A program made the translations under genes and the position numbers. A stretch of 64,000 bases of DNA from the NCBI RefSeq assembly GCF_015694525.1, contig NZ_JADQDM010000005.1, forward strand, positions 1 to 64,000, given 5' to 3'. The notes beneath the pieces were generated by a model, which did no database searches, had not been told where the DNA came from, and was given only the letters and a program-made list of their open reading frames with translations. The DNA is from Hymenobacter ruricola (GTDB lineage Bacteria; Bacteroidota; Bacteroidia; Cytophagales; Hymenobacteraceae). Below, piece after piece: positions 13,929 through 40,202 of this stretch (position 1 is its first letter; the number at the start of each line of letters is the position of its first letter).

Positions 13929-14044
13929 GGCGGAAAAGCAAAAGGGTTTTGGGTGAAAATAGTATATTATTTCTAATATATCTACTTCCCGTCCAAAACC
14001 CTTTTGCAAATTCCCGGCTAAGCTGAGCCGTTGCGGCCCGCGGC

Positions 14045-26191: not shown

Positions 26192-26372
26192 AACATTGTA
26201 AGTCATTGACTTACGTTACATCCCTATCACAACATACTTGTCATTCCACAATATGGAAGCATTCCCAAACTGGGATAGTTCAACTTGTTCTTTGCTAGCT
26301 GCATATCGTTCCAACAATTCGCTTTACTTTCGTTGCCTTTAAAGCGCAAAAATATTTTTCATCAGTTTCTAA

Positions 26373-27488
26373 ATGGACCAAAATTTACTGCTAGCTCTCG
26401 ACGAAGCCGTTGCGCGCATTCCCGTTATTAATCCCGAGCGTCAGTACTGGTTCATCCGCACCAACGGCGGTGCTTTTTATGACGACTTCTGGAAGACCAG
26501 AAGCGTTGGCATCGGCTACAATCTGGTCACGCTGGCGGCTGTCAATAAAGCATTCGCCGATAAATCCGACTCTTATTCGCAGTTGCAAGCCGCGGTTTAT
26601 GCCAAGTACAAGGATGAAAACATCGGCAAGGCAACGGGCTTAATATGGCGCTTTTTGGTTGACATGGCACCTGGCGACATTGTCGTTATGCCCAGTGCCG
26701 GCTCCAATAAACTTGCGTTTGGAGAAGTTACGACAGGTGCTCCCTTTGAAGTAGAAACAAGTACAACGGATGAAGATGTTGTATATAGAAAACGGCGTAG
26801 TGTAAACTGGCTCGCAGAAAAAGGATGGGGAGAACTCGACTCAAATCTGTATGGGGCTTTCGCGGCCACCCAGGCGCTGACGTCAATCACCCGGTTCGGA
26901 GACTACTTGGACAGAGAGATATACGCCATCTATACGAAGGGCGAAGAAACCCATGTGCGATTGGACATCCAAACCAAAGGAGGAATTGACGGAGAAGACT
27001 ACTTTGCGATGGGCAACTACTTGTTGGAGTTGTGTCAGGAGTTCCGCGAAGAAGCCGGTATGCGTGCGGCTGGCAACCGAATTGAAATTAGGACCAACGT
27101 CCAGTCTCCGGGGATGGTGGAGTTCATCAGCCACAACCAAGTGCTGTCCGCTTTTCTTGGCTCACTGGCCATAGTGGCGCTCGCAGGCGGCCACGCAGTC
27201 GCGGCAAAGCTCGGGGGCATCACCATCGGAAGCAACGGGCTACTTAGGGCCGTGATGGATTTTGCAATGGCGAATACAAAGCGCAAAGCCATCAATACGA
27301 TTCTTGAGAAAAAACTTGACGCAATGGATGCCAACGTCGCAGCTGACCTCGTACTTAGGCTGAGCGGAGTGGCCCCTTCATCGCCGTCCAACCCTTCTAC
27401 TGCTTCCTCGCCTCCCACTCCACCTTTGCCACCAAATAGCTCCACACTGCCAACCTTGCCCCCATCTCAACAAGATTTAGACATCTGA
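26373..27488 (+). CDS. PUA-like sensor protein with membrane segment, candidate defence gene
   Basis: 371 residues. The N-terminal ~150 resemble the PUA/EVE-like nucleic-acid-binding domain found in front of Mrr-type and other restriction proteins: YWFIRTNGGAFYDDF...VGIGYN, then PGDIVVMP and LAFGEVTTG. A middle domain (REIYAIYTKGEETHVRLD) leads to VQSPGMVEFIS and a hydrophobic Gly/Ala-rich segment (about 255-290). The tail is rich in Pro, Ser and Thr. This is the first cargo gene at the left end. A sensor joined to a membrane effector is a common plan in abortive infection, but the role here is inference. Confidence 0.6.
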   Translation: MDQNLLLALDEAVARIPVINPERQYWFIRTNGGAFYDDFWKTRSVGIGYNLVTLAAVNKAFADKSDSYSQLQAAVYAKYKDENIGKATGLIWRFLVDMAPGDIVVMPSAGSNKLAFGEVTTGAPFEVETSTTDEDVVYRKRRSVNWLAEKGWGELDSNLYGAFAATQALTSITRFGDYLDREIYAIYTKGEETHVRLDIQTKGGIDGEDYFAMGNYLLELCQEFREEAGMRAAGNRIEIRTNVQSPGMVEFISHNQVLSAFLGSLAIVALAGGHAVAAKLGGITIGSNGLLRAVMDFAMANTKRKAINTILEKKLDAMDANVAADLVLRLSGVAPSSPSNPSTASSPPTPPLPPNSSTLPTLPPSQQDLDI

Positions 27489-27492
27489 TAAC

Positions 27493-27741
27493 GTGAACTT
27501 TCCAACGACTAAACGGTGTTTTGATAGCATGAGAATCATACACCATTGGGTGTCGCTGGTCGCTACGTTTGTGATGGTCTTCTCGGGTCTGTACCTCGTC
27601 TTGGAATACACTGTCGGATTACTTCCGGTGTTTCAAAGCTGGATGGTAGGACCCGTTACCGGCCGGAGCCTCGTGTTCAGCACCCTTGTTTTGGTATTCA
27701 TCATTCGATACGTGAAAATCCGTTCGCCTTACAGCAGTTAA
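27493..27741 (+). CDS. small two-helix membrane protein
   Basis: 82 residues from a GTG start 4 bases after the preceding gene (an ATG at 27529 would give 70). It has two membrane helices (HHWVSLVATFVMVFSGLYLV and a later SLVFSTLVLVFIIRYV). The tight spacing indicates one operon with the PUA-like gene. Not recognised; it may be its membrane partner. Confidence 0.6.
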   Translation: MNFPTTKRCFDSMRIIHHWVSLVATFVMVFSGLYLVLEYTVGLLPVFQSWMVGPVTGRSLVFSTLVLVFIIRYVKIRSPYSS

Positions 27742-27765
27742 CAGGATACTACGTTTCGACCAAAG

Positions 27766-27800
27766 AAAGCCCCTCTTCACCGGTGGGGCTTTTTCTTTTT
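27766..27800 (+). terminator. terminator of the first cargo operon
   Basis: AAAGCCCC and GGGGCTTT arms around a 12-base loop, followed by TTTCTTTTT. Confidence 0.8.
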
Positions 27801-27889
27801 GACATGCTACATATATTAGTACCAAATACTAGGATTGTTAGAAGCAACTTTTTATCTTTATGCTTCTTCTAACCAAAACCATACCCGTT

Positions 27890-28015
27890 ATGCCAAAAGC
27901 ACCGGAACCCAAGAAGACCATTTACCGTGATTCGGAGAGTGGTCGAATCGTCAAAAAGGAGTATGCTGAGAAGCATCCTAAAACCACGGAGAAGGAGCGC
28001 GTACGGAAGAACTAG
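27890..28015 (+). CDS. 41-residue basic protein
   Basis: Starts MPKAPEPKKTIYRDSESG and ends KERVRKN. The pattern YRDSESGRIVKKEYAEKHPKTT resembles a family of very short proteins common in Bacteroidota and Proteobacteria whose core is YRDA.TG.FVTK.YA..HP.TT. Function unknown. It is an independent unit with a terminator on each side. Confidence 0.72.
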   Translation: MPKAPEPKKTIYRDSESGRIVKKEYAEKHPKTTEKERVRKN

Positions 28016-28029
28016 TACTCCTGTCTCGG

Positions 28030-28066
28030 CGGGCCAGGTTCCACAAGGGGCTTGGCCCGTTTTTTT
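28030..28066 (+). terminator. rho-independent terminator
   Basis: CGGGCCA and TGGCCCG arms with T7 behind, directly after the 41-residue gene. Confidence 0.85.
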
Positions 28067-28087
28067 GTGCAATATCAGTCGACTTCG

Positions 28088-29107
28088 ATGAAAGCGTCCG
28101 AACTCATTAATGCTGCAATAGATGAATTGCACGGTACAGCCGCATTATCTACAGCCTTACTTAAGGTCAAAACAATTGCTTTTTTAATCAAAAACCAGCA
28201 ATTGAAGGAATGGGTAAACTTCGAGCTTAAGGGTTACGATGATGGAAGCGAGGTCCCTTCATACAGGAAGACTTACATACCAGTATACGCTACATTACTA
28301 CATGTAAACTTTTCCTATAATGGCGCTCGTCAGAACGATGTACTGGTGCCAATGGAGTATCTCACAGAAGAAGAACGAGCAAACGTTGGCGAAAGGAATC
28401 TTTCGATGAGTATAACTGAAATCGAAGAATGGGCCCTTTCTGAACAGGGAGGGTTACATGAATTATCCAATGCGCAGCGGAGCTTTCTCAACCACAAACT
28501 GTACAGAAGCAAGAGGAGCGAGTGGATTCTTTATAAAGCCTGGCAACCTCTCTCAGCACCGTTCTTCAAGGGGGTTTTGTTTACTGTCCGTGCTACCCTG
28601 CTAGATTTATTGTTAGAACTAAGCGAATGGGACGACGTCTCTTTGCAATCCCTACAACAGAAACAACTCATCGACGACACCGTGAGCAAAGCCCTCCACT
28701 CAATTACCGTCACTGCTGGTGGCATCGTGAATGTCTCCCATGGTGATGGGTCCGTACAAGCCGCGAATACCGGTGATGCTGCGCAGTTCAATGTGGCCAG
28801 CGGTGAAGCTATTTCTCAATCCATTGCATCAGGGCAAGTTGCTTCCTTGCCCGAATTGGTCGAGCAAATCAAGCAGGCTTTTCAACAGGACCCAGCTTTT
28901 GATTCTCACCGGGAAGAGATAGACCACCAAGTTCAAAGCATTGATTTGCAGTTGCAAAAGCCTGAACCCAAAAAAAGCATCCTCAAACGGGCCTTCGACT
29001 CGCTACAGGAGCTTGCAGCGGACAGTGCCGGAGCAACGGCTGGGCATGCCGTTTTTGAGCTCCTCAAACAAGCTCCCACATTGCTAGCGACTGGTGGGCT
29101 GGGGTAG
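28088..29107 (+). CDS. AbiTii domain protein
   Basis: 339 residues from the ATG at 28088. The N-terminal ~190 match the AbiTii pattern: SELINAAIDELHGTAALSTALLK, then LKEWVNFELKGYDDG and a PSYR proline motif. A Gly/Ser-rich beta stretch and a helical C-terminal half (AFQQDPAFDSHREEIDHQV) follow. AbiTii is named after a lactococcal abortive-infection locus against phage. It lies alone with following small genes, and no toxin domain is obvious within it. Likely a phage-defence component. Confidence 0.75.
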   Translation: MKASELINAAIDELHGTAALSTALLKVKTIAFLIKNQQLKEWVNFELKGYDDGSEVPSYRKTYIPVYATLLHVNFSYNGARQNDVLVPMEYLTEEERANVGERNLSMSITEIEEWALSEQGGLHELSNAQRSFLNHKLYRSKRSEWILYKAWQPLSAPFFKGVLFTVRATLLDLLLELSEWDDVSLQSLQQKQLIDDTVSKALHSITVTAGGIVNVSHGDGSVQAANTGDAAQFNVASGEAISQSIASGQVASLPELVEQIKQAFQQDPAFDSHREEIDHQVQSIDLQLQKPEPKKSILKRAFDSLQELAADSAGATAGHAVFELLKQAPTLLATGGLG

Positions 29108-29151
29108 AGAATCAGCGTAGCGACCAAGAAACTAACTTTTTTCTAACGACG

Positions 29152-29616
29152 ATGACCTTTGAAATTCCGGGTGGACGCCACGTAAAGGCAAATTTTGACC
29201 AAGAGCTTCTCTCCATCTTGCAAGATGACGGGCTGGGCTTGCCTCCCACCTCTAATACAACAGCCTTTATGGAGCAATTTGCTCAACAGGTACTGGCCCA
29301 GACTGGCCAGCAGATGCAAACCGATTCGGTCACTCGATTTCTGTCTGATTTGCAACGATACGGCTTCCTAAAACCTATTGGCAATGTGTGGAATGCGTTC
29401 GTTATCAATGGGATTAGCTGGGGATTACGTGGCCCAACTGCCCCTCAAGGGTGGCAACATCAACTTACCTGGTCAAATGAATTACCTCTTGTCATCTCAA
29501 CTCATTTTGGAGGAGCCACTGTTCAGCGCCCTATCCGCATGATGGATTTAGCTAAGCCTGGCTATCAGGAGCAATGGTTAATGGAGCACCTGAGCCAAAT
29601 GCGCCGCATCGCTTAA
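29152..29616 (+). CDS. hypothetical protein
   Basis: 154 residues, soluble, no motif recognised. It starts 44 bases after the AbiTii gene and is followed 19 bases later by a membrane-protein gene, so the three may form one transcription unit. The sequence has a helical N-terminal half and a Trp-rich central part (SWGLRGPTAPQGWQHQLTW). Confidence 0.6.
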   Translation: MTFEIPGGRHVKANFDQELLSILQDDGLGLPPTSNTTAFMEQFAQQVLAQTGQQMQTDSVTRFLSDLQRYGFLKPIGNVWNAFVINGISWGLRGPTAPQGWQHQLTWSNELPLVISTHFGGATVQRPIRMMDLAKPGYQEQWLMEHLSQMRRIA

Positions 29617-29635
29617 TTGCATAGCTTGACTTGTG

Positions 29636-30346
29636 ATGGAAGACCCTAAAGAAGACTGGGATTGGCTAGCCTTTTTGTCGAAATGGCATGAGACTGAGTA
29701 TGACCGCCGATATACACTCGAAAACGTAGTGACGACGCCGATTACACTCCTGACTGGGGTGTTCGGCTTGTCTTACTTACTCATAACCCAATTCGATTAT
29801 AAACACAGCAGCTTATACTACTTGCTGTTTTTTCTGATACCCTTAGCGGTCGCGCTTGGCTATGCTTTTCGTTCTGCTGTTTTTGTGTATAGGTCCTACG
29901 CGGTGGTGAAAAAAGGTGTGTACAAGAACATTCCGGACGCTGCCCTTCTCCGTCGGCACATGGACAACCTGGTTGCTCATTACAAAGAGCACGACCCGGC
30001 ATCAGACGGTGTGCAAAAATTTAAGGAATATTTCGTAGAATTGCTGGCGGACCAAATCACCGTGAATGTGGTCAACAACGACGACCGCACGATTAACATT
30101 CAGAAGTCGAAGGGCCCCATAATGGGCGCACTATTGGGGTTGCTCTTGACCATGCCTGGCTTCTTGACTAACCAATTAAGAAAGCCGGACCCGACGTATC
30201 AAGTTACCATCCTCCCTAATTCAGCAAACGCCATGAGTGAGACCACATCCCCTTTGCCGCCGCCGCCACCGATGGAGCGGCAAATACTAGACCTTCCACG
30301 GCCAACCCAGCCCCTCCCCCAACCCCTGCCTAAGCCCAGCAAATGA
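29636..30346 (+). CDS. membrane protein with proline-rich tail
   Basis: 236 residues from the ATG at 29636. Two helices near residues 33-85 make a hairpin, a cytoplasmic helical domain follows (VKKGVYKNIPDAALLRRHMD), then a stretch VNVVNNDDRTINIQKSKG and a third helix (GALLGLLLTMPGFL). The last 50 residues are rich in Pro (PLPPPPPMERQILDLP). Its stop codon overlaps the next start (ATGA). Possible membrane effector of a defence module; function unknown. Confidence 0.65.
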   Translation: MEDPKEDWDWLAFLSKWHETEYDRRYTLENVVTTPITLLTGVFGLSYLLITQFDYKHSSLYYLLFFLIPLAVALGYAFRSAVFVYRSYAVVKKGVYKNIPDAALLRRHMDNLVAHYKEHDPASDGVQKFKEYFVELLADQITVNVVNNDDRTINIQKSKGPIMGALLGLLLTMPGFLTNQLRKPDPTYQVTILPNSANAMSETTSPLPPPPPMERQILDLPRPTQPLPQPLPKPSK

Positions 30347-30450
30347 GCAAACCGACCCCACCGCCCCCACCGCCTCCGCCGCAAAGGGAAATCAGAGAGC
30401 TGACGCCTCCGCCAGTTGCACCGCCACGGCCACAGATTCAACAGAAGTAA
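30343..30450 (+). CDS. 35-residue proline-rich peptide
   Basis: Starts MSKPTPPPPPPPPQREIREL in a 4-base ATGA overlap with the membrane-protein gene and ends PPRPQIQQK. Its RQ.REIREL/PPP pattern echoes the tail of the upstream protein (MERQILDLPRP), so it may be a duplicated tail or a translationally coupled partner. It is too short for any family call. Confidence 0.5.
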   Translation: MSKPTPPPPPPPPQREIRELTPPPVAPPRPQIQQK

Positions 30451-30464
30451 GCGCTTTTACGACC

Positions 30465-30496
30465 CGAAGTCCCAGCTTTATAAAGCTGGGACTTCG
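30465..30496 (+). terminator. perfect 32-bp palindrome, probable terminator
   Basis: CGAAGTCCCAGCTTTA is followed immediately by its exact complement. There is only a weak T-run after it (TAGTTTGG). Confidence 0.6.
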
Positions 30497-30533
30497 TAGT
30501 TTGGGCATAAATTCATTTCCTGACTTGATTAAC

Positions 30534-30971
30534 GTGACAGCTCCTCCTTCTCCATATTCCACCTGGGCCGCCTTTTACCGGTCATTGCAGAATACTTGGC
30601 AATTTGAGGACGGCGCTGGGGTGAACTATGACGGCACGCTCTATCCGTGGGAATTTGTTAGGAAAATGGTGCGCGAAGAGGCGGGTCAACCAGAGCCGTT
30701 TGACAAGTTCATCACCAGCAAGTCATTCTCTGTCGAAGAGGGAAACCTGGAAATCAAGTACGAAAACGACTTTGATACTGGAAACATCCGGTTGCGAATT
30801 ACGGGTTATTTCACCCCTCGCAAGTACCTGACAGGCGAAACGTGGATGACCGAGTCCTACGACAGCCAAGCCGCGACAGAAAGGCGGTTCAGAACATTCG
30901 GGCAACAGGAAGCCGAGTATATGGCTCGACACTTGCTTTCTACTTACTCGCTGGCAACGGACAACTACTAG
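30534..30971 (+). CDS. hypothetical protein
   Basis: 145 residues from a GTG (the open frame begins with TTG at 30501, just outside the palindrome). It is a soluble acidic protein with aromatic residues (SPYSTWAAFYRSLQNTWQFE). No family recognised. It has a terminator behind it. Confidence 0.6.
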   Translation: MTAPPSPYSTWAAFYRSLQNTWQFEDGAGVNYDGTLYPWEFVRKMVREEAGQPEPFDKFITSKSFSVEEGNLEIKYENDFDTGNIRLRITGYFTPRKYLTGETWMTESYDSQAATERRFRTFGQQEAEYMARHLLSTYSLATDNY

Positions 30972-31007
30972 CCTAAAGCCGGCTCTCTTGACCAAACAAA
31001 ACCCACT

Positions 31008-31034
31008 GCTCCCACCAACCGGTGGGAGCTTTTT
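31008..31034 (+). terminator. rho-independent terminator
   Basis: GCTCCCACC, loop AACC, GGTGGGAGC, then TTTTT. Confidence 0.88.
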
Positions 31035-31444
31035 GATTTCAACCGATGTCGGTCCCCACCGACAGTTAACGATGCCGGTGGTGGGGGGTGGCACACTGCT
31101 TGTTGCCGGTCGGCGACACCTGCACACACATTTTTTGGCTTTTCAGGCTATTGAGAGCCACGATAACGGTCAATCGAGCTATTGGCAGCACAGTCACCGT
31201 TTCATACACTCAATTCGCCGGAGCCAAATAGGGCTTTTTTTGGCCCATACGGCACGCTAAACTTGATGGCGTACCCCCCTACGTGAACTAAAAAAGAAAT
31301 TTGGTTGTGTGTGGGGCACACACACCTACCTACGAACGGCACCTTGCCCTACTGTTTCGACCATTCGGTCAACGAACGTTGAATCTACGGCCGATTTATC
31401 CGTTGAATTAAATTTGAATTCAATATCTTTGTAACGTACGATAC
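31035..31444. other. no supported gene; non-coding transposon DNA
   Basis: About 410 bases between two terminators facing each other. I see no frame with gene-like composition. It contains several short GT/AC-rich stretches (GTGTGTGGGGCACACACAC at about 31304-31322). Confidence 0.6.
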
Positions 31445-31477
31445 AAAAAGAGGCCGAACCCCAGGGGGCCGGCCTCG
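31445..31477 (-). terminator. terminator of the 47-residue peptide gene
   Basis: Minus strand: GAGGCCGG..CCCC..GGGG..CGGCCTC followed by TTTTTG, 10 bases after the stop codon at 31487. Confidence 0.8.
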
Positions 31478-31486
31478 ATTTGAGTC

Positions 31487-31630
31487 TTACAGCTGACGTA
31501 GAACTGCCGTTGATAAAACGCCAGTTGCTGCCGCTGCAAGGATGATGAGCCATTTGACTAGCTCATCAGATAGTTGAAGGTCCAGCCGTAGTCGGGCCTT
31601 CGGTTTTGATTTCGCAGGTTCCTCTTTCAT
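31487..31630 (-). CDS. 47-residue single-pass membrane peptide
   Basis: Starts MKEEPAKSKPKARLRLDL: a basic head, then a helix (LVKWLIILAAAATGVLSTAVL) and ends RQL. AGAGGAA lies just inside the start. Its own terminator supports a real gene. Size and layout resemble toxin peptides of type I systems or small membrane regulators, but no partner RNA is shown. Below usual annotation length limits. Confidence 0.55.
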   Translation of the reverse strand: MKEEPAKSKPKARLRLDLQLSDELVKWLIILAAAATGVLSTAVLRQL

Positions 31631-31993
31631 TAGACGGAAGATGTGGTGCGAAAAACACCCGCCTTCTTGAAGCCCTAGCGTTGTGCCGACGCCGGGGCTT
31701 CACCTTTTTACAGGTAACGCTTTGGCGGGGTGACAAACCCTGCGATGGGGTAAAGGTAGGCAGCTTTTTGGCCAATACCGCAAGACCAAAAAGAAGCCTG
31801 CTTCCAGTTTGACAGCGGGCATTTACAATTAACGCTATCTAATTCAGCGCTTTAATTCAACCTGTACATATGTACAGGTAGTAGTTTCGGTGGTAGTTTA
31901 AAGCACGAAATGTGGATAACTTTTTCGTTATTTATCACCAGTGATAAATAACTTCCCACTCCTTTATTGCTTTGACGCCTCTTCGGTCATTTT
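31631..31993. promoter_or_regulatory. intergenic region with palindromes and a DnaA-box-like site
   Basis: Contains a stem GAAGCCC/GGGCTTC with nested GCGT/ACGC (31669-31701), an 18-base perfect palindrome CCTGTACATATGTACAGG (31861-31878), TGTGGATAA (31911-31919, the complement of the DnaA consensus), and a 12-base-arm palindrome GTTATTTATCAC-CA-GTGATAAATAAC (31927-31952). The last two lie 40-80 bases upstream of the 31994 gene and may be operators. Confidence 0.55.
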
Positions 31994-32242
31994 ATGACTC
32001 TCTACAAGTTCAACCTACTCCCTTACGACCGGCAACTGGTGGCCGTGTTCGATGCAGGTCACAAAGTGGCGACCCGTTGGGAGGAAGAGGACTGGGTGAA
32101 CCTCTACTGGCTTCCCGGGGGGATATTCGTGGAGCTGTACTACGACACCCACCTCAAGGAGATTACCCAGTTGAAAAGCTTCACCAGTTCGGACCCACTG
32201 GGGGACTACGCGGCGTATGTCCAGCTTCCGGAAGAGTTGTAA
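31994..32242 (+). CDS. hypothetical protein
   Basis: 82 residues beginning MTLYKFNLLPYDRQLVAVFD; acidic and rich in Trp/Tyr (RWEEEDWVNLYWLPGGIFVE). Start is ATG. It lies alone downstream of the palindromic region, with no family recognised. Codon use agrees with coding. Confidence 0.65.
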   Translation: MTLYKFNLLPYDRQLVAVFDAGHKVATRWEEEDWVNLYWLPGGIFVELYYDTHLKEITQLKSFTSSDPLGDYAAYVQLPEEL

Positions 32243-32312
32243 GAGCCTGTCGATAAATTCTAGGCTACTGTGGAAATACCATTCACGGATGGAAGTAGCT
32301 GGCAACTGAAAG

Positions 32313-32343
32313 TTGTATCCGCGCGTTAGAATGAATACATTTG
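32313..32343 (+). promoter_or_regulatory. promoter of the TIGR04255-like operon
   Basis: TTG (32313-32315), 20 bases, TACATTTG (32336-32343). The start would be near 32350, leaving a leader of about 165 bases. The leader contains ATACCA-T-run-TGGTAT (32401-32419), a hairpin that could act on translation or transcription. Confidence 0.7.
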
Positions 32344-32517
32344 TACCATTGCTAGTTTCGTTTGCATTAAATTAGAATTTCATCATTTTTCCTCCTAGTA
32401 ATACCAGTTTTTTTGGTATTTTCTATGATACTTAGTAAAGCACTGATTTAGTAAGTTCCTGAACGCACTAAAACCACACCATAACTCAGCATACCCAGCA
32501 ATCATACTTGTCGAAGA

Positions 32518-33309
32518 ATGTTCGGATTCCCGGTTCAACAAAAGGACGAAAATTTCAAATTTGTGCGCAACTTCCTAAGGACTGTTGTCTTTCAGGTCAA
32601 GTTTCCCACAATTGAGAATTTCGCTGCAAGGCAGTCAGAGATACAAGATGCGGTTAAGTCGACGTTTTTTGTTGCGGCAACAGATGAGCAAACCTTCCAG
32701 ATAACGCTTGATTCGGGCACACCTGTGATAACGCCAGCTGAGGGGGTACCAGGAACAATGGAATTTCATGATACTTCTCGCCAAAAGATTTTTAATGTTT
32801 CAAATGACACTTTGTCGTTGACTATCTCTGGAGCTGCTTATACCAATTTTAGACAAGTACAGAATGACCTCAACGCGTCGATATACGCAGTTACTGAATT
32901 ACTTCAAATCAAAACCTTTTCGCGTGTAGCAATACGCAAAATCAATCTCGTATCAGCTCGTTCAAAAGTCGTTTCGCCTAAGGCAAAGGAAATGATTAAA
33001 GGAGTTTTTAATAATGACCTCCTTACGTCAGTATTTAATATGCCTGCTGCGGAGCACCTTTTGACATCAATAACAAACTCTCGTTTTGTCGAGGGTGACA
33101 ACACGCTTAACATAGTATATGGCTTATTACCTAAACAGGATTTTGAGCCTGATTCTAGCCACCTGCTTTTGGATATAGACCTTTTCAATAGCTCGACTCA
33201 TTCCTCCATCGAAGAAATAAAATCTAATTTCAATTTAATAAACGATGCTATCTATAATATTTTCATTTGGTCACTGCAACCGTCTTTAATATCTATACTC
33301 TCTGCGTGA
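32518..33309 (+). CDS. TIGR04255-like protein
   Basis: 263 residues. The N-terminal part (LRTVVFQVKFPTIENFA) and the central stretch LQIKTFSRVAIRKINLVSAR fit the TIGR04255 family, which are sporadic, uncharacterised proteins often found on mobile DNA. Acidic, soluble, AT-rich codon use unlike host genes. First gene of a three-gene operon (gaps 39 and 7 bases). A defence or toxin-antitoxin role is inference from the setting. Confidence 0.6.
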   Translation: MFGFPVQQKDENFKFVRNFLRTVVFQVKFPTIENFAARQSEIQDAVKSTFFVAATDEQTFQITLDSGTPVITPAEGVPGTMEFHDTSRQKIFNVSNDTLSLTISGAAYTNFRQVQNDLNASIYAVTELLQIKTFSRVAIRKINLVSARSKVVSPKAKEMIKGVFNNDLLTSVFNMPAAEHLLTSITNSRFVEGDNTLNIVYGLLPKQDFEPDSSHLLLDIDLFNSSTHSSIEEIKSNFNLINDAIYNIFIWSLQPSLISILSA

Positions 33310-33348
33310 ATATAATTTACCTTTTGTTCTACCATAAAAGAAAAAGCC

Positions 33349-34140
33349 ATGCAGACTTGTTCAACCGAAACGTTTTCCTTTGCAGCAACTCAACCAGAAT
33401 TGGAACAGGACATTCACAAAAGATGGCATGATTTTGCTGTTACGACTGGTTCTACTACCCCTTACATCAAACAAAAACGTGGCACCTTGTTGCAACACGG
33501 TACACTTATTTTGTGTCTGGCTTTACCACCAGTATGTGCTTCAACAGAGTACAATACTTTTGTTACTCCCCAAGGCTATGCAACGATAAGCCAAGTGGCT
33601 CAAATCACTGAATGGGCAGCGGCGGCTACCAGCCCTACGCTGCCGAAATCGCCATTCAACGACTTGAATAATGAGGCAAATCCTACGTCCACTTCGCTTG
33701 ACGAAGGATACAGTTATCTGGGCAACGAATTTGTCTTCCTGAATTCTATGACTTCATGGGGGGACAAAGTAGCTGCACACGGGACTATAGATGAGTCTGT
33801 AGTTAATTCATCTGAATCAGAATCGCTCACTTACAAAGACCTCAGCGCTATTTTCAACGAAACTGCCATGGCTCCCTTGGGCATTAGAGATATATGTTTC
33901 AAAGCAGCTTCGGCTTTTGATGCTTTTGGCATTGAAGGAGTGAAAACCTATTTCACTGCTGATGACAGTATTCTATTTGAGTTATTTCACAAAGACTCCT
34001 ATTTTTCGCTGGAAGTATTCGACGATGGAGACATTGTCTACTTGAGCAGACAAGGTGACTCTAATGCCTTAGCCTACGACATTAGCCCGGAAGATATTTA
34101 CGGGAAAATTCGTTCTATACACGACGCTACTGCCGCATAA
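33349..34140 (+). CDS. hypothetical protein, operon partner
   Basis: 263 residues starting MQTCSTETFSFAATQPELEQ. No signal peptide or membrane helix is convincing. A central Asn/Ser/Thr-rich linker (SPFNDLNNEANPTSTSLDEG) joins a helical first half to an acidic second half (ILFELFHKDSYFSLEVFDDG). Not recognised. It starts 39 bases after the TIGR04255-like gene and ends 7 bases before the next. Confidence 0.6.
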   Translation: MQTCSTETFSFAATQPELEQDIHKRWHDFAVTTGSTTPYIKQKRGTLLQHGTLILCLALPPVCASTEYNTFVTPQGYATISQVAQITEWAAAATSPTLPKSPFNDLNNEANPTSTSLDEGYSYLGNEFVFLNSMTSWGDKVAAHGTIDESVVNSSESESLTYKDLSAIFNETAMAPLGIRDICFKAASAFDAFGIEGVKTYFTADDSILFELFHKDSYFSLEVFDDGDIVYLSRQGDSNALAYDISPEDIYGKIRSIHDATAA

Positions 34141-34147
34141 CGAACGA

Positions 34148-34639
34148 ATGTGTAGTAATGAAACGGTGCCAGAGCATCTCCATAGGGACGGCAGGCCAGT
34201 TATTGACTATTTTTCGCCAGACGAGATAATGTACCGACGGTTTGAAAAAGAGCCGTTAGCTTCACCTGATGGAAAAACAGTCAGCGCAAGTGCTTTCCCA
34301 TTGCGTGATGATTCTTATAATCGGGGCCTGTTCTGCCGCCACCACGAGGATGTGCTATACGACGAAACAAAAGAGAATAACACGCATTATTTTGCTAAAT
34401 GGGGTGTAGCAGAATTTGCGCACGCTGATTTTACGGCTATCTATGAACTGGATGAGCCCAAAGACTTGCGCCAATTTCATGTAACTATTGCTCACGTGCC
34501 AAATGAGTGCATGTATCCTCATTCCCAGATGGTAGTCACGTTGGAAGGCGTAGAGGCTGCGGTGCCCAAATCGATTAGAACTAAAATCAGGGAGAGGCTT
34601 TTGCGAATCTGTAGGATTGTCAAGCATGTAGACCCTTAA
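34148..34639 (+). CDS. hypothetical protein, operon partner
   Basis: 163 residues. A conserved-looking pattern: IDYFSPDEIMYRRF, then SASAFPLRDDSYNRGLFCRH, then HVTIAHVPNECMYPHSQM. Several His, Cys and Arg residues could form an active or metal site. It ends in a basic helix (KIRERLLRICRIVKHV). Not assigned to a family. Last of the three-gene operon, closed by the terminator at 34656-34702. Confidence 0.6.
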   Translation: MCSNETVPEHLHRDGRPVIDYFSPDEIMYRRFEKEPLASPDGKTVSASAFPLRDDSYNRGLFCRHHEDVLYDETKENNTHYFAKWGVAEFAHADFTAIYELDEPKDLRQFHVTIAHVPNECMYPHSQMVVTLEGVEAAVPKSIRTKIRERLLRICRIVKHVDP

Positions 34640-34655
34640 GGGGGCATGTGGCACT

Positions 34656-34702
34656 AAATGTATAACCCCCAGCCTTTTGAGAGGGCTGGGGGTTATACAT
34701 TT
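34656..34702. terminator. strong bidirectional terminator
   Basis: A perfect 19-base stem (AAATGTATAACCCCCAGCC and its complement) with a 9-base loop between convergent genes. Confidence 0.85.
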
Positions 34703-34719
34703 ATAATGAACACTCAGAG

Positions 34720-35199
34720 CTACTTTGGTACCATTGTGATGGTCTCCTTCGTCTGGGCACCGTTGTCGTTCCAGTTGAAGACAATCTTCAACTCGTTAGC
34801 CGATACTGTGAAGGGGTCCAAGTAGTCCTCCCGGGTTCTGCTGTTGTTCATCAAGAAAGGCATGCCGGTCATAAAGAGGTAGTCCTGCCGGGCATCATAC
34901 CGCCAGGTACCGAAGTACCTTGTTTGGGGACTTGTTGGGCTGCACTTCACAGCACCATCGTCGTACCGCCACGTCCCGTTGGTGTCAAAATGGTAGTAGT
35001 CATCTGTACCGCACGTCATCACGGAATACACATCAGTCGTTTGGCCACGCACGTCCAGCGTGTAAGCGGTGATGCGCCAATCGTGCGCGGTGAGCAATGC
35101 AGGCTTATCAACCACAGGGGGCGTTGGGTCAGCAGATTTCTTTGAGCAGTCGGCCAGCAACAGGCTTCCACTCAGTAACAGTAACGCGAAGGGTTTCAT
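34720..35199 (-). CDS. predicted lipoprotein with lipocalin-like domain
   Basis: 159 residues. Signal peptide with a lipobox-like LLADC (Cys 19). The rest has the lipocalin-like Bacteroidota pattern: HDWRITAYTLD, then YYHFDTNGTWRYDDG, FGTWRYDARQDYLFMTG, and an ending with beta strands. Usually such proteins are uncharacterised surface or periplasmic lipoproteins. It reads opposite to the HTH gene across a 113-base shared gap. Confidence 0.7.
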   Translation of the reverse strand: MKPFALLLLSGSLLLADCSKKSADPTPPVVDKPALLTAHDWRITAYTLDVRGQTTDVYSVMTCGTDDYYHFDTNGTWRYDDGAVKCSPTSPQTRYFGTWRYDARQDYLFMTGMPFLMNNSRTREDYLDPFTVSANELKIVFNWNDNGAQTKETITMVPK

Positions 35200-35256
35200 A
35201 AAAAGAGAAAAGGTGAAGAGGAAAAATCGTATTCAAAAGTAGTCAAAACTGTTTTT

Positions 35257-35305
35257 ACAATAACTTTTATGTTATTGTCAATAGCGCGAATGGGGTCGCA
35301 CTTTG
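35257..35305 (+). promoter_or_regulatory. HTH gene promoter with inverted repeat
   Basis: ACAATAAC-TTTTAT-GTTATTGT (35257-35278) overlaps the TTG (35275-35277), which lies 20 bases before GCACTTTG (35298-35305). The start would fall at the ATG (35313), giving a leaderless message. The repeat is a likely operator, perhaps for autoregulation. Confidence 0.55.
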
Positions 35306-35312
35306 CTACTGG

Positions 35313-35543
35313 ATGGCAGGCAAAGAGACTCACCCCGTACTGGTCGCATTAGCGCGGCGCCTGAAAGCCCTACGGGAAGCCCGGCATCTCACTCTGATGG
35401 AAGTATTAGACACCACCAACGTCAATGCCGCACGCGTGGAGTCCAACCGGCAAAACATGACGGTAAAGACGCTGATAACACTTTGCGCCCACTACCATAT
35501 CACGCTGGGTGAGCTATTCGAGGGCATTGAAAAGGAAGTTTGA
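35313..35543 (+). CDS. XRE-type helix-turn-helix regulator
   Basis: 76 residues: a single HTH_3 (Cro/C1) domain, LARRLKALREARHLTLMEVLDTTNVNAARVESNRQNMTVKTL split over helices 1-4. No dimerisation tail is present, so it resembles phage and mobile-element repressors. It probably controls the adjacent lipoprotein or transposition genes; it converges on tniQ with a 13-base gap. Confidence 0.85.
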   Translation: MAGKETHPVLVALARRLKALREARHLTLMEVLDTTNVNAARVESNRQNMTVKTLITLCAHYHITLGELFEGIEKEV

Positions 35544-35556
35544 AGTGCTCCAGTCT

Positions 35557-36606
35557 CTAGTAAGGGCCTTGATAGTGCGCGTTAAATTTTCTGTTCAGGT
35601 TGGACACGTAGAAGTTGTCCATCACGACCGTATGATACCAGAAAGGAGCCTCTTCCATGTCTCGCAGCAAAGGAGTACTGGTGAGTTTGCCTTTGCTCGC
35701 TCGTTCGATAAACCGATGAGGCCACTCTTCCAGCAGCCAACCAGCTTGCTGCAACAAAGCAGCTCGCAGTTCCAAAGGCAACATTTCAAACGGAAGACGG
35801 CCCTTGGGCAGTTGGAAATACGAGGGAGGCAACTCAACACCTGCTTGTTCAACCACGCACTGCTGCAAAGCTTCCGTACGGTGTTGGCTGCTGAATAGTA
35901 TCCGCACCAAGTGGTGTAGAACCTGAAAGTAGAGATGCGGATGGAAAACCTCCGCTCGCCACCCTTCGGCCAATATTCGGTCACACTCCCTTTGCCATTG
36001 TACCAAGGCAGCCGGTGCTGGAACCGCCGGAGTATTGCACCAATCAAACAAGCAACGGTGGCATATCGTGAAGGAACGACCTGGCAAAGTTGATTTTTGT
36101 CCTAACTCCGCACGAAAAAACGCCACTGGCTCACCGCATTGCGGACATTGGTCCTCCAGCCGCATTTCACAGACTGGGCACGCTACGGACAGTGCTAACC
36201 GCCATTGCTTGCGAAAATAGGGCGTATCGCCGTCCTTCCGCAAGCACGACGGGCAAAACAACAGCCCATTGCGCCGGCGGGTCCGGTGGTAGACGCCCAA
36301 GGGTAGAATCCATGGCGTATTGCCGTTCACGTTGTGCCGCAAGTACAATCGCCCCTCGTAACTTTTCAACGTCGTGGCGAATACCTGCTCAAGCGACGCT
36401 GGGGTTCGGGCCGCCAAAATGGCCAATACCTCGGGGTGGGCAATTTTATCCGCGTCCCGATTCCAGATGTTGGGGGTGGGAAAGATTAACCTACCAAAGG
36501 TGTACACCTTAATAAGGTGGGCATGGGCCAGCCGAACCAGCCAGCTGGACAACAACTCATCCGGGCGGGGGCGCATTGCGCAGGGTAATTGGGTGGTGGA
36601 GTGCAT
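35557..36606 (-). CDS. tniQ: TniQ/TnsD-family target selector
   Basis: 349 residues. It begins with the TniQ motif (RPDELLSSWLVRLAHAH), followed by zinc-binding clusters FCPSCLRKDG, CPVCEMRLEDQCPQCGE and ICHRCLFDWC. In Tn7-like elements TniQ/TnsD binds a chosen attachment site and recruits TnsC. Being only 349 residues, it is nearer the short TniQ type than full TnsD (about 500), but still has a C-terminal domain of about 150 residues that may read the comM sequence. Confidence 0.9.
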   Translation of the reverse strand: MHSTTQLPCAMRPRPDELLSSWLVRLAHAHLIKVYTFGRLIFPTPNIWNRDADKIAHPEVLAILAARTPASLEQVFATTLKSYEGRLYLRHNVNGNTPWILPLGVYHRTRRRNGLLFCPSCLRKDGDTPYFRKQWRLALSVACPVCEMRLEDQCPQCGEPVAFFRAELGQKSTLPGRSFTICHRCLFDWCNTPAVPAPAALVQWQRECDRILAEGWRAEVFHPHLYFQVLHHLVRILFSSQHRTEALQQCVVEQAGVELPPSYFQLPKGRLPFEMLPLELRAALLQQAGWLLEEWPHRFIERASKGKLTSTPLLRDMEEAPFWYHTVVMDNFYVSNLNRKFNAHYQGPY

Positions 36607-36612
36607 AGCTGT

Positions 36613-37500
36613 CTAGATGAGCTTGTGAAACTTCATTCGGTCCGAGGGGGTGGTATAATCGACCTTGTTCAGCACAGCCGCCGTGATGCGTTCCTTCTTA
36701 GAATCAATCGCTAAAACGGCCGCGAGCTTGAGAATTTTGGAGATTTCGCCAATGGTTCCTTCGCTCATGCTCAGCAGCTTCAATGCAATGCTTTCGTCGG
36801 CCAAGTTAGACGGCTCCCGCAAGGGTAACAGCCGCTCGAAACTGAGCAGTAGGCGCAAGTAATCATCGCCGATGACCCACTTGGGCAAGGGAACTGGCTC
36901 GAATCGGTTGGCTAATTGCTCGTCGCTTTGCACAGCACTAAAAGCCGTGCGGATGCCCGCACACACAAGGGGGACCATCAACTCGTTGGACAAGTACTTG
37001 ATTACATTTAGAAACTGCCGCTGCTTTCCCTGATTCCCAGCCAGAATGTGCTGAATCTCGTCGATGACAAGCAGTTTAACCCCTAATTGCCGCAACACGT
37101 GGATAACCTGGAGCTGTTTCTTGCCCACATGGTCGTTGATTCGGTGCGGAGCATTCACTCGGTCGAGCACGATGTTATAAAATCGCTTCTCGTCGGGCTC
37201 TGGAGGAGCCTGCACGTACAGCACCGGCCATTGAAGCCGGCCATCGTCTTCCAAGGGTTGCGGCTGGTGCGCGTGGCAAAAGCGGCGTAAAATGGCCGTT
37301 TTTCCGTTGTTAGTGTCCTCCACCAGGAGCAGGTTTGGCATCCTGTGGGATGTGGGGTGTTGCAGCAAAGCCTCCATTTTGGCGAGTGCTTGCTGGGCCC
37401 GGGTGTACGGAATCCACTTCTCCGCCAGGATTGCGCGTTGCCGCTCCGCATCCGGCAGCTCCAATAACCGGAGTACGTTAGGATGCAAATGAGGCGTCAT
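36613..37500 (-). CDS. tnsC: TnsC/TniB transposition ATPase
   Basis: 295 residues. Walker A is DTNNGKT (62-68) and Walker B LLVIDEIQHI (D147, E148), with the TniB pattern YNIVLDRVNAPHR before it. It is a AAA+ regulator that links target selector to transposase. The ATG at 37500 overlaps the end of tnsB by 23 bases and tniQ follows 6 bases later, so all are one transcript and translation is probably coupled. Confidence 0.92.
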   Translation of the reverse strand: MTPHLHPNVLRLLELPDAERQRAILAEKWIPYTRAQQALAKMEALLQHPTSHRMPNLLLVEDTNNGKTAILRRFCHAHQPQPLEDDGRLQWPVLYVQAPPEPDEKRFYNIVLDRVNAPHRINDHVGKKQLQVIHVLRQLGVKLLVIDEIQHILAGNQGKQRQFLNVIKYLSNELMVPLVCAGIRTAFSAVQSDEQLANRFEPVPLPKWVIGDDYLRLLLSFERLLPLREPSNLADESIALKLLSMSEGTIGEISKILKLAAVLAIDSKKERITAAVLNKVDYTTPSDRMKFHKLI

Positions 37501-39388
37501 CAAACAAGTCGTCAAAAGGTTGAAGAGAGGTAGAAGCCGGAGGGGTTGTTTCCTCCGAAGGTGTCGGAGTGGGACGGGGCGTTCGGGCATCCAGCAGGCG
37601 GTCTGCTTCTGTGCGAGGCGCTCCACTTAGGAGCCGGTTGCGGGCCTTGGTGACCTGTTTAGTCTGCTGTACGGCTGCTAATTCCACGGCCCGCATCCGG
37701 TCGTACGCCTCGAAAATGGCCCGTTCGTTCACGGCATCGCCCAGTTGAGCGACGGCTAAGTCTCGTGCTTGGCGGAACTCCCAGACGGACATGGCTGGAT
37801 GGGAAGTGTCCCGGTATGGAATGCGGTGGTATTGCTGGGTAGCCGGGTCCAGGAAGTAGAGAAAGCTGATGTCCCGAGGGTCCCGCTTGAACACAAAACG
37901 GCGTTTCCGAGGGGATTTTGCCGGTGCGTCGGGGTCTGGGGCGTTGACGTATTGCCGCAGCACGTCGGCGTAGTAAAACACGTGGTCGATGACGACCCCA
38001 TACTCTTGGATGGTGCGCTCTTCGGCCGGCATGAAATCCACCCGTACTTGCAGTTCGTCGGTGAGCCGGGCCGGCAACCCCGTTCCGACTTGTCGGACAC
38101 TGCCCAAAATGCCTTCCTGGTACCGGTCATAGGGCGCTTGCTGAATGCCCTGGTGGACCCGCTTGTGGTACACCTGCACGATGAACGTAGTCAGCCATTG
38201 CTCGAACTCGGGGAGTGTCAGGGCCGCCTTTTTTTCGCTGTCGTAATCCTTCCGCTCGCGCACGTTGGAAAAAGTGGTTCCCGGTAAGCTATGGACCTCC
38301 TGCATGAAGGTGCCCATCAGGCGCTCGATGTGCCCACCCCAATGGGGTTTGCCCACTGGCCGCCACTCCAAGTTGATGCCGTACTTCTCGCAGGCCCGTT
38401 GCAGCGTCACCCCGCGAAACTCCTTGGCGTTGTCGGCGTGAATAGTGCTCATCACGCCCCAGCAGGGCCACTCCCCAGCCACATCCAGCTTGCTTAGCCA
38501 GACTTCTTTGGGAAGAATGGCATGGGCCAAGCACAAGCCCGTTCCTACGGCGCCAGGTGAATCGAAGGACAAATAAAACCCGACCACCATGCGGGAAAAC
38601 ACATCCAGAGCAACCGTAAGCCAGGGGCGCCCCACGGGGCGTCGGTACTGTTCGTCCACCAGAATCAGGTCCACCAGGGTGTGGTCAATCTGCACCATAG
38701 CCAGGGGGAAATCGGCTCCTGGGAAGCTACCGCGCAACGGAGTGAACTGCTCTCGTGCTTGCTTGGGGCTACCCCGATGCCGCACCTTCTCTTCGGCGGG
38801 ACGGGCGCGGATGCGGCGCCGGATGGTGTTATCTCCTGGAGGAACAAGTCCGGCCCGGTGGCACTGCTGCCGAACGGCCAGAATGACCTTGGCTATCGAC
38901 TTGCGCTGGTTCGTTAGGTAATGGGCGTCGATGGCGTCCTGGACCAGGGTTTCGATGGGAGAAGGCAAACGCTGCTGACCTTTGCCGCCCCGGATACCTT
39001 CCACGAGGGAGACAACCGAACCGGTTTCTGAGTAAGCATGAAGCCACCGGTATAGGGTAGCAGGGTGCCGCCCGTGTTGGCGAGCCACGGCTTCTACCCG
39101 TTGCTGGGTACGGGGTCCCTCCAGCAACGGCGCGAGGATAGCCAATTTGGTCCGGGCTTTTTGCAGGGTGGCCTCGGGCAGGTGAAGAACAGTATCCACA
39201 GGTGCTCCTTCCGAAGGGGCCTCCCCTTCGGTTAACGGCCGCAATTCGGCGATAAGCGCTGGGACTACGGCCCCGGTGGCTTCGTATTCAACAAGCACGT
39301 GTTGCAGGTCTTGCACGCGACGAACGCGCACGACGGCCCCTTGGTAGCGGCAACGCTCCCCCGGGACCAATCGGAGTGATTGGTCCAT
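37478..39388 (-). CDS. tnsB: TnsB/TniA DDE transposase
   Basis: 636 residues. N-terminal HTH (HPATLYRWLHAYSETGS), then the integrase catalytic core with D235 (QIDHTLVD), D319 (HADNAKEF) and E355 (GGHIERLM), then a Mu-type C-terminal domain and disordered tail, as in Tn7 TnsB. It cuts and joins the transposon 3' ends. The ATG at 39388 is chosen over a TTG at 39400. Confidence 0.95.
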   Translation of the reverse strand: MDQSLRLVPGERCRYQGAVVRVRRVQDLQHVLVEYEATGAVVPALIAELRPLTEGEAPSEGAPVDTVLHLPEATLQKARTKLAILAPLLEGPRTQQRVEAVARQHGRHPATLYRWLHAYSETGSVVSLVEGIRGGKGQQRLPSPIETLVQDAIDAHYLTNQRKSIAKVILAVRQQCHRAGLVPPGDNTIRRRIRARPAEEKVRHRGSPKQAREQFTPLRGSFPGADFPLAMVQIDHTLVDLILVDEQYRRPVGRPWLTVALDVFSRMVVGFYLSFDSPGAVGTGLCLAHAILPKEVWLSKLDVAGEWPCWGVMSTIHADNAKEFRGVTLQRACEKYGINLEWRPVGKPHWGGHIERLMGTFMQEVHSLPGTTFSNVRERKDYDSEKKAALTLPEFEQWLTTFIVQVYHKRVHQGIQQAPYDRYQEGILGSVRQVGTGLPARLTDELQVRVDFMPAEERTIQEYGVVIDHVFYYADVLRQYVNAPDPDAPAKSPRKRRFVFKRDPRDISFLYFLDPATQQYHRIPYRDTSHPAMSVWEFRQARDLAVAQLGDAVNERAIFEAYDRMRAVELAAVQQTKQVTKARNRLLSGAPRTEADRLLDARTPRPTPTPSEETTPPASTSLQPFDDLFDDASFAS

Positions 39389-39407
39389 AATCCGAATCAA
39401 AAATTAG

Positions 39408-40070
39408 TTAGAGCGACCAGAGAGGGGTGTTCATTGCCAAGGGCGCGGCGGTCAGGTCTCCGCCGATGCGGCCGCAACTGAGCAGGTGCCAGCAATGCGG
39501 CAATAGCTCCTCCGGTTGCGCTCCGGTGAAGTAAGCACCAGCGGTAATCAGGTCTTGAGGTGTAGACTTTTGGGCCCGAGTGAGCAGGTCCAGCAAGGCG
39601 GTGGTATGGCAGGACGGCACGGGCGCGGTGCGGAAACGGAGCAACAGCCGGGCGTTGCCCAGTAAGGGAGTTGCGAGAATATCCGCTTCGGTGAATACCC
39701 GAAAGGCCCAGCCTTGCTCTGCGGCGTAGTGCCGGGCAGCATCGAATTTGGGCGCCAGTTCGGCGGCCTTGGCGTCAAGTTCCGACTGGTATTTCACCTC
39801 CGCCAGGACAGCTTGCACTTCGTCTTCGTATTGAATAAGAAAGTCCGGTGTGTAGTGTCGCACACCCCGGGAACCGCCCGGGGGATGATAGGGAATGGTG
39901 ACGGGTTGCTCGCAGAAGTAGCGAACGCGGGGGTCAAACTCCAGCAGTAAGCACAAACTGCGTTCAAGCGCGGACTCGACGCGAACTACATGGTCGGCTT
40001 TCGAGGAAGGAAGAGCTCCACGCAGGGAGCCACTGTAACCAATTCCAATCTTTCGGGTGGGTATTTGCAT
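39408..40070 (-). CDS. tnsA: TnsA endonuclease
   Basis: 220 residues. Restriction-enzyme fold: E32 in RVESALERS, D76 in YTPDFLIQY and E91/K93 in AEVKY form the PD-(D/E)xK-type active site. The C-terminal helical domain is the TnsA_C-like part that contacts TnsC. With TnsA the element makes clean cuts at both strands, giving cut-and-paste movement and agreeing with the simple insertion seen here. Start is the ATG at 40070, 127 bases from the right end. Confidence 0.9.
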   Translation of the reverse strand: MQIPTRKIGIGYSGSLRGALPSSKADHVVRVESALERSLCLLLEFDPRVRYFCEQPVTIPYHPPGGSRGVRHYTPDFLIQYEDEVQAVLAEVKYQSELDAKAAELAPKFDAARHYAAEQGWAFRVFTEADILATPLLGNARLLLRFRTAPVPSCHTTALLDLLTRAQKSTPQDLITAGAYFTGAQPEELLPHCWHLLSCGRIGGDLTAAPLAMNTPLWSL

Positions 40071-40104
40071 AAAAGAGTCGCAGTATCTTTGGCGAAAAGC
40101 CAAT

Positions 40105-40197
40105 GGGTTCGCATCTTCTATGGTACTAAGACGCAGTAACTCTGGCGCTCGTTACCGACGTGTCCGAAAATGGTCGTATTTACCATGGAAATTCACA
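40105..40197 (-). repeat. transposon right end with putative TnsB site
   Basis: On the minus strand the end reads TGTGAATTTCCATGG, and inside it is CCATAGAAGATGCGAACCC (40105-40123), matching 15 of 19 bases with the left-end site at 26155-26173. A hairpin TTGGC-GAAAA-GCCAA lies at 40089-40103. Confidence 0.6.
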
Positions 40198-40202
40198 GGG
40201 GG
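40198..40202. repeat. target site duplication, right copy
   Basis: GGGGG immediately after the terminal ...TTCACA, equal to 26121-26125. Confidence 0.85.

What the first reader, a model, noticed from the sequence alone, without database searches (positions are those of the whole stretch)
32313..34702. Three-gene operon led by a TIGR04255-like protein, possible new system
One consensus promoter, one long leader with a hairpin, three tightly packed AT-rich genes and one strong terminator form a sealed cassette. Only the first gene has any family hint, and the third has a conserved-looking Cys/His/Arg pattern. Cassettes with unknown genes in fixed order inside mobile elements are a typical source of new anti-phage or toxin-antitoxin systems.
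Basis: partly seen in the sequence, partly recalled or inferred. Interest (0 to 1): 0.72.

Follow-up and report, generated by a model that had tools for sequence, protein, structure and literature searches.

The report
Modular three-gene toxin-like system
A three-gene set carried as cargo on a jumping gene belongs to a recurring kind of bacterial operon in which a common first gene is combined with swappable, toxin-like last genes through a matching middle gene, much like known toxin-antitoxin-chaperone defence systems but built from different proteins.

Summary
The three genes are real and intact: A (TIGR04255, E 1.2e-19), B and C (no family over a curated cut-off). They are cargo of a 14,072-bp Tn7-like transposon in comM with a 5-bp target duplication, beside AbiTii. 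In 45 TIGR04255 loci read, the third gene varies: HEPN, PIN, zeta toxin or uncharacterised families. Gene 2 similarity tracks gene 3 (17 of 51 pairs against 9 of 971); one natural chimera shows B's N-terminal half going with gene 1 and its C-terminal half with the effector. Best reading: a modular tripartite toxin-antitoxin-like system; gene 1 sensor/chaperone-like, gene 2 adaptor/antitoxin, gene 3 toxin. It works like TAC/CmdTAC, but no SecB homology was seen. C's chemistry is unresolved; very weak fold hits point to NADases. No toxicity or phage data exist. No held paper contains 'TIGR04255'.

The parts
32518..33309 (+). Gene A: TIGR04255 family protein, 263 aa; proposed sensor/chaperone-like first component (role inferred)
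   Evidence: NCBIfam TIGR04255 E 1.2e-19, 71.1 bits over cut-off 30; ORF
33349..34140 (+). Gene B: 263 aa; proposed bipartite adaptor/antitoxin (role inferred)
   Evidence: relatives in B position
33832..34128 (+). C-terminal region of B (about residues 162-260), the part shared with B proteins of other C-bearing operons
34148..34639 (+). Gene C: 163 aa; proposed toxin/effector (role inferred)
34493..34522 (+). C motif H116-x-P-x-x-C-x-Y-P-H125
   Evidence: alignments
34655..34703 (.). 23-bp hairpin, terminator-like, between C and a convergent ORF
   Evidence: z -6.0
32400..32420 (+). 8-bp leader hairpin (weak)
26126..40197 (.). Tn7-like transposon carrying the operon, 14,072 bp
   Evidence: ends and rejoined comM frame; tns genes
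26121..26125 (.). target site duplication GGGGG, left copy
40198..40202 (.). target site duplication GGGGG, right copy
39408..40103 (-). tnsA-like
   Evidence: Pfam Tn7_TnsA-like_N 8.3e-21
37478..39400 (-). tnsB-like transposase
   Evidence: Pfam Mu-transpos_C 2.9e-5 and HTH_23 over cut-off; rve below it
36613..37626 (-). tnsC/TniB-like ATPase
   Evidence: Pfam TniB 4.6e-70
35557..36606 (-). tniQ
   Evidence: Pfam TniQ 4.3e-24
25269..26125 (+). comM, 5' part, interrupted
   Evidence: match to solved ComM 2.1e-58
40203..40881 (+). comM, 3' part
   Evidence: frame restored when flanks are joined; ORF

Best explanation
The three genes are one instance of a recurring, modular, tripartite toxin-antitoxin-like conflict system found on mobile elements. 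C is the toxin/effector. B is a bipartite adaptor and antitoxin: its C-terminal part is matched to the effector and its N-terminal part, by inference, contacts the first protein. A (TIGR04255, replaced by the unrelated A' in some relatives) is the common sensor or chaperone-like part that keeps B functional and C silent until an infection or stress signal releases it. Shown by sequence: the conserved set, exchange of gene 1, exchange of gene 3 including recognised toxin folds, matching of gene 2 with gene 3, the mobile context. Inferred: toxicity of C, neutralisation by B, the role of A, any anti-phage outcome.
For: Conserved order in 10 of 10 genomes with C, gaps -20 to +39 bp; first gene TIGR04255 in 6, A' in 4. 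Third genes in the same slot: PIN (L049, 6.8e-11), zeta toxin (L024, 3.1e-12), HEPN (L045, L025), all over Pfam cut-offs. At least 20 effector-class changes on the TIGR04255 tree. Gene 2 similar in 22 of 22 pairs with close gene 1 and same effector, 17 of 51 with distant gene 1 and same effector, 9 of 971 with both different. Chimera L028: B N-half with L032/L035 (2.2e-6), C-half with L043/L056/L058 (3.3e-25), these two sets not alike. Mobile context with AbiTii and a PDC-S02-like gene.
Against: No functional data. The N-half rule rests on one chimera: of 38 pairs with gene 1 E<1e-30 and unrelated gene 3, only L028-L035 and weakly L058-L060 (0.003) have similar B below E 0.01. All 9 B alignments between pairs with different effectors also centre beyond the middle of B, so position alone is not diagnostic. 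Window B has a weak N-terminal hit to G087 B (0.025) although gene 1 differs. Pairs are not independent. Window TIGR04255 is divergent (long branch).
Confidence: 0.58

Rival explanations
1. A defence complex without antitoxin logic: A or A' recognises a phage component, B couples it to C, and C is an effector inactive until triggered, so that C alone is not toxic and B does not neutralise it.
For: Same gene data fit a sensor-adaptor-effector chain; gene 1 and gene 3 are both exchanged.
Against: PIN, zeta and HEPN third genes are, by general knowledge, usually held by antitoxins.
Confidence: 0.2
2. A two-gene toxin-antitoxin pair (B-C) with TIGR04255 as a DNA-binding autoregulator.
For: The TIGR04255 model resembles TBP among other folds (E 4.7e-4); gene 2 of L029-L031, L033 and L034 reads as if it holds a helix-turn-helix (by eye).
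Against: AdoMetDC prozyme scores better and guanidino kinases lead by Z; TM-scores are low; gene 1 is replaced by the unrelated A'.
Confidence: 0.1
3. A member of the known toxin-antitoxin-chaperone (TAC) systems with a SecB-like chaperone as gene A.
For: Same modular logic.
Against: No SecB family match for A in Pfam at E<=1; the listed top fold matches of TIGR04255 are other folds.
Confidence: 0.04
4. A housekeeping or metabolic accessory operon without a role in conflict.
For: One third gene looks like a metallo-beta-lactamase-type protein (L055, by eye); no functional data.
Against: Sporadic presence of TIGR04255 (7 of 148 and 28 of 292 genomes), mobile context, toxin folds in the same slot.
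Confidence: 0.08

Closest known systems
Toxin-antitoxin-chaperone (TAC) systems and CmdTAC (PMC5105189, passages; PMC11618068, abstract, outline and section 6)
   Same: Three small genes; a common helper combined with unrelated toxin-antitoxin pairs; a segment of the antitoxin links it to the helper and is transferable; CmdTAC is anti-phage with an ADP-ribosyltransferase toxin.
   Different: Helper is SecB there, TIGR04255 or A' here with no SecB match; link segment at the antitoxin C-terminus there, apparently N-terminal in gene 2 here (one chimera); toxin C has no family.
TIGR04255 family (NCBIfam, 'sporadically distributed' by its short name)
   Same: Gene A is a member.
   Different: The family is a number without a stated function; gene 2 and gene 3 are not covered by it.
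Panacea (DUF4065) antitoxins (PMC8832971, passages)
   Same: One constant domain neutralising many unrelated toxins (abstract start, passages).
   Different: Two-gene systems with the constant part on the antitoxin; here a separate constant first gene. I found no mention of TIGR families in that text.
Tn7-like transposon cargo (PMC8649781, passages)
   Same: Tn7-like core carrying defence and toxin genes; PIN and other toxins are listed there as cargo.
   Different: comM does not occur as a whole word in that main text; I did not see this three-gene set in the passages shown.
NAD+ glycohydrolase toxins with the fold of Tne2
   Same: Top two second-look matches of the C model (Z 3.2, 103 aligned; Z 2.8, 86 aligned).
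   Different: Z far below significance; no Foldseek match at E<=0.001; active-site residues not compared.

Membership tests
TIGR04255 family (gene A) | score over the curated cut-off (30 bits) along the full profile | tested here: met
   71.1 bits, profile 2-249 of 252
Tn7-like transposon (the element) | tnsA, tnsB, tnsC and tniQ homologues, TGT..ACA ends, 5-bp target duplication | tested here: met
   no repeats of 12 bp or more within either end stretch searched, so TnsB sites were not shown
Toxin-antitoxin-chaperone (TAC) | SecB-homologous chaperone gene | tested here: not met
   A has no SecB family match in Pfam at E<=1; at fold level inconclusive
Toxin-antitoxin-chaperone (TAC) | common helper gene associated with unrelated toxin-antitoxin pairs | tested here: met
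Type II toxin-antitoxin system | toxicity of one product, neutralised by the other | not testable with these tools
   needs expression tests
Anti-phage defence system | protection against phage | not testable with these tools
   needs phage challenge; PADLOC has no match to A, B or C of the window
ADP-ribosyltransferase/NADase fold (gene C) | significant fold match with catalytic residues in place | tested here: inconclusive
   Z 3.2 and 2.8 only; no Foldseek match at E<=0.001; residues not superposed

The most novel reading that the evidence does not exclude
TIGR04255 and A' are exchangeable sensor/chaperone hubs of a large, undescribed class of tripartite bacterial immune systems, in which a bipartite adaptor lets evolution plug different toxins (HEPN, PIN, zeta kinase, and several new enzyme families including C) into the same hub; C founds a new NAD-consuming or ADP-ribosylating toxin family.
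Probability: 0.25. Interest if true: 0.82.

Novelty: new variant of a known kind. Interest (0 to 1): 0.62.

Why it matters
It offers one explanation for a protein family known only by a number (TIGR04255): a common hub with swappable toxins. It predicts which unknown third genes are toxins and where hub and toxin contacts lie in the middle protein, and can be tested by swapping halves of gene 2. It would add several unclassified effector families and a parallel to toxin-antitoxin-chaperone systems that does not use SecB.

Tried and rejected
Without relatives: B in genome contigs; B, C and the G443 C in plasmids; the G443 C in phages; window-type C in viral contigs (a distant homologue, C2, does occur in viral contig L058); A' (L009) in viral contigs; A' profile in the phylum of G595, 1 of 292, namely G595 itself. 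PDB sequence relatives: none for TIGR04255, none convincing for C and B (best E 0.33 and 0.2). A' as half of a TIGR04255 repeat: no profile similarity, and no internal repeat seen by sequence in TIGR04255. C as a relative of the other third-gene families: hhalign supports only C2 (80%, E 1.4e-5), weakly C5 (6%, E 0.006), and none of C3, QTCD, HEPN, FWL. A SecB fold for TIGR04255 was my expectation; AdoMetDC, TBP and guanidino-kinase matches were listed instead, which does not exclude it. Viral structure match for C: none at E<=0.001. Weak hits set aside: PDC-M32A for gene 2 of L058 (9.8e-4), phrog_5464 of unknown function for the L016 TIGR04255 (7e-4). Papers: no held paper contains 'TIGR04255'; the listings showed no title or abstract start describing this operon; most subscription-journal papers and bioRxiv are not in the library.

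Labels and dropped rows: third-gene classes come from phmmer clusters plus reading by eye (L018, L022, L041, L050, L055; L054 clustered). L018 as C rests on its motif and alignment, not on a phmmer link; the profile contained it. L033 was labelled from gene 2, no third ORF being listed. L021 (near copy of L020) was left out of the tree and the pair counts. L044 and L061 had no third gene read, L052 fitted no class: these three were not counted as states. Gene starts are longest ORFs, not verified.

Full report
What is there. The window lies in genome G000 (5.96 Mb, contig C26), a Bacteroidota genome judging from the titles of same-phylum relatives (Rhodothermales, Chitinophagaceae). The finding holds three intact co-directional ORFs: A 32518-33309, B 33349-34140, C 34148-34639, gaps 39 and 7 bp. 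A is a divergent but full-length TIGR04255 protein (E 1.2e-19). B and C have no match over a curated cut-off in Pfam or NCBIfam and none in PADLOC at E<=1 or PHROGs at E<=0.1. A 23-bp hairpin follows C (z -6.0). The promoter claim is not supported.

Where it lies. The operon is cargo of a Tn7-like transposon, 26126-40197, with tnsA, tnsB, tnsC and tniQ, ends TGTGAAATTCC and TGTGAATTTCC, and a GGGGG target duplication; joining the flanks restores an open comM frame. The 5' part of comM matches the solved ComM protein (2.1e-58). Other cargo includes a PDC-S02-like gene (3.9e-16) and AbiTii (3.6e-27). TnsB relatives occur in 35 of 204 family genomes at E<=0.001, many of them short weak matches. 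I read stretches of two sister elements (TnsB 65% and 59%): they share the Tns genes and a comM flank, and none of genes A, B and C matched in the stretches fetched. PMC10293859 (passages) describes comM targeting by TnsF in a Tn6022-like element; this element has TniQ, and I did not look for a TnsF.

Do the three genes travel together? I identified C in 10 genomes: the window; G087 (same genus); G443 (= Rhodothermales MAG, L010); G454 (= Chitinophagaceae PMP191F, L012); a Bacteroidetes MAG (L009); a Sphingobacteriaceae MAG (L011); a cyanobacterial MAG (L013); Flavobacterium terrae (L014); G248 (L018, by motif and alignment); and G602 from the phylum of G595 (L053). The family is rare: 3 of 395 Bacteroidota genomes with the window protein, 4 of 395 with a profile that already contained the fourth. 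In 10 of 10 genomes C is preceded by B and a first gene, gaps -20 to +39 bp. The first gene is TIGR04255 in six. In four it is a short protein of roughly 115-125 residues, here called A', without profile similarity to TIGR04255. The genomes of those four (G087, G595, G597, G598) gave no TIGR04255 match.

The general architecture. TIGR04255 occurs in 7 of 148 Bacteroidota genomes, in 28 of 292 genomes of the phylum of G595, titled a cyanobacterium, in four plasmid records found by two queries, and in 4 viral contigs. I read the genes downstream of 45 TIGR04255 loci (three of them carry C). Third genes recognised by Pfam over its cut-off are PIN (L049), zeta toxin (L024) and HEPN (L045, L025); L015 and L046 cluster with the HEPN rows, L015 being below the Pfam cut-off (0.0043) but matching PADLOC HEPN_IX (4.9e-6). 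Others are uncharacterised: C; C2, a distant homologue of C (hhalign 80%, E 1.4e-5); C3; a QGD/TQxCD family; and two families whose gene 2 looks like a helical repeat (by eye). On a TIGR04255 tree of 47 rows, 12 classes over 44 rows need at least 20 changes; 300 shuffles gave 26-32, mean 29.9. So third genes have been exchanged repeatedly, though not at random. The tree is a quick one with long branches; the window row is one of them and its place is unsure.

Gene 2 is matched to gene 3. Among 48 operons (four with A'), B was similar in 22 of 22 pairs with close gene 1 and the same effector, in 17 of 51 pairs with distant gene 1 and the same effector, in 1 of 5 with close gene 1 and different effectors, and in 9 of 971 with both different. 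The 17 alignments all centre beyond the middle of both B proteins, two of them (L006-L053, L017-L038) spanning most of the protein; but so do the 9 alignments between pairs with different effectors, several of which may be distant relatives of one type (by eye), so position alone is not diagnostic. Pairs are not independent. The clearest case is L028: its TIGR04255 is 52% identical to that of L035 while their third genes are unrelated. Its B matches L032/L035 only in the N-terminal half (profile E 2.2e-6) and the B proteins of same-effector loci L043/L056/L058 only in the C-terminal half (E 3.3e-25); these two sets do not match each other (E 0.46). The window fits for the C-terminal half: its B aligns with that of G087 at 46% over residues 183-260, C is 50% identical over 161 residues, and the first genes are TIGR04255 and A'. 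Against generality of the N-half rule: of 38 pairs with gene 1 E<1e-30 and unrelated third genes, only L028-L035 and weakly L058-L060 (0.003) show B similarity below 0.01, and window B has a weak N-terminal hit (0.025) to G087 B.

Structures. C was modelled from 7 sequences (pLDDT 75.4, pTM 0.74). Foldseek finds nothing at E<=0.001 in PDB or viral models. The second look gives 4 chains at Z>=2, the first two NADases (Tne2 Z 3.2, rmsd 4.5, 103 aligned; Neurospora NADase Z 2.8, rmsd 4.3, 86 aligned). This is a lead, not a result. The YRR motif lies in strand 27-33 and S56-x-N58-R59 in strand 56-59; arginine and serine in two early strands would suit an ADP-ribosyltransferase-like site (recalled), but a metal-free RNase using histidine and arginine is equally open. 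TIGR04255 was modelled for L060 with 8 sequences including the window (pLDDT 84.5, pTM 0.82). Best matches are AdoMetDC prozyme (1.1e-4) and TBP (4.7e-4), with low TM-scores, and guanidino kinases by Z (up to 8.6). I read this as a two-half saddle of sheet and helix; function cannot be told from it.

How it probably works. TAC systems pair SecB-like chaperones with distinct toxin-antitoxin families through a transferable segment of the antitoxin (PMC5105189, passages). In CmdTAC the chaperone senses phage capsid, the antitoxin is degraded and a toxic ADP-ribosyltransferase is freed (PMC11618068, abstract, outline and section 6). The present family shows the same modularity in its genes. I therefore propose that A senses or stabilises, B neutralises C through its C-terminal part, and C acts when B is lost. 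It works like TAC; it is not a TAC member by the sequence test made here (no SecB match for A).

Novelty and verdict. No held paper contains 'TIGR04255', and PADLOC matched none of the TIGR04255, C, C2, C3 and A' proteins given to it. Within those limits this is an undescribed, modular variant of tripartite toxin-antitoxin-like systems. The mechanism is inferred and untested.

Noticed in passing
window 26126-40197: Complete-looking Tn7-like element with tnsA, tnsB, tnsC and tniQ inserted in comM about 45 bp upstream of the stretch coding VLFLDELPEF (Walker B, recalled); target duplication GGGGG. Sister elements with other cargo exist in the same family.
   Followed up: partly
window 28052-30971: AbiTii gene (Pfam 3.6e-27) followed by ORFs 29152-29616, 29633-30346 (membrane-like by eye) and 30501-30971 without families; possibly a larger abortive-infection operon.
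   Followed up: no
window 26373-27488: First cargo gene matches the PADLOC defence candidate PDC-S02 over its N-terminal part (3.9e-16); no Pfam family.
   Followed up: no
window 34720-35199: Lipoprotein-like ORF (by eye) convergent with C; two relatives (37% and 28%) lie in the sister element of G028, so it may be a usual passenger of these elements.
   Followed up: no
G000:C12:433-2316: A second TnsB relative (52%, E 3.4e-199) elsewhere in the window's own genome.
   Followed up: no
L073 (G011), 9604-11064 and 13604-14071: Sister comM element whose cargo holds several ORFs that look like TIR-type proteins (KKVFVSYDHSED..., by eye).
   Followed up: no
L029, L030, L031, L034, L032, L035, L039, L042, L054: A large TIGR04255-associated third-gene type with a QGD...TQxCD motif and no Pfam match in the two tested (L042, L030); in some loci gene 2 seems to hold a helix-turn-helix (by eye). 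Likely another unknown effector.
   Followed up: partly
L024 (CP063527.1, 1-2105): TIGR04255 + gene 2 + zeta toxin on a 12-kb linear record labelled Vibrio parahaemolyticus; the ORFs look GC-rich for a Vibrio, so the label may be wrong (impression only).
   Followed up: no
L061 3060-4720: TIGR04255 directly downstream of an ORF that reads like a phage head-maturation protease (by eye), i.e. inside a phage structural region.
   Followed up: no
L026 2989-3996: Methylorubrum extorquens megaplasmid: a weak A' relative (26%, 4e-4) followed by membrane-like ORFs (by eye) instead of B and C, so A' may have other partners.
   Followed up: no
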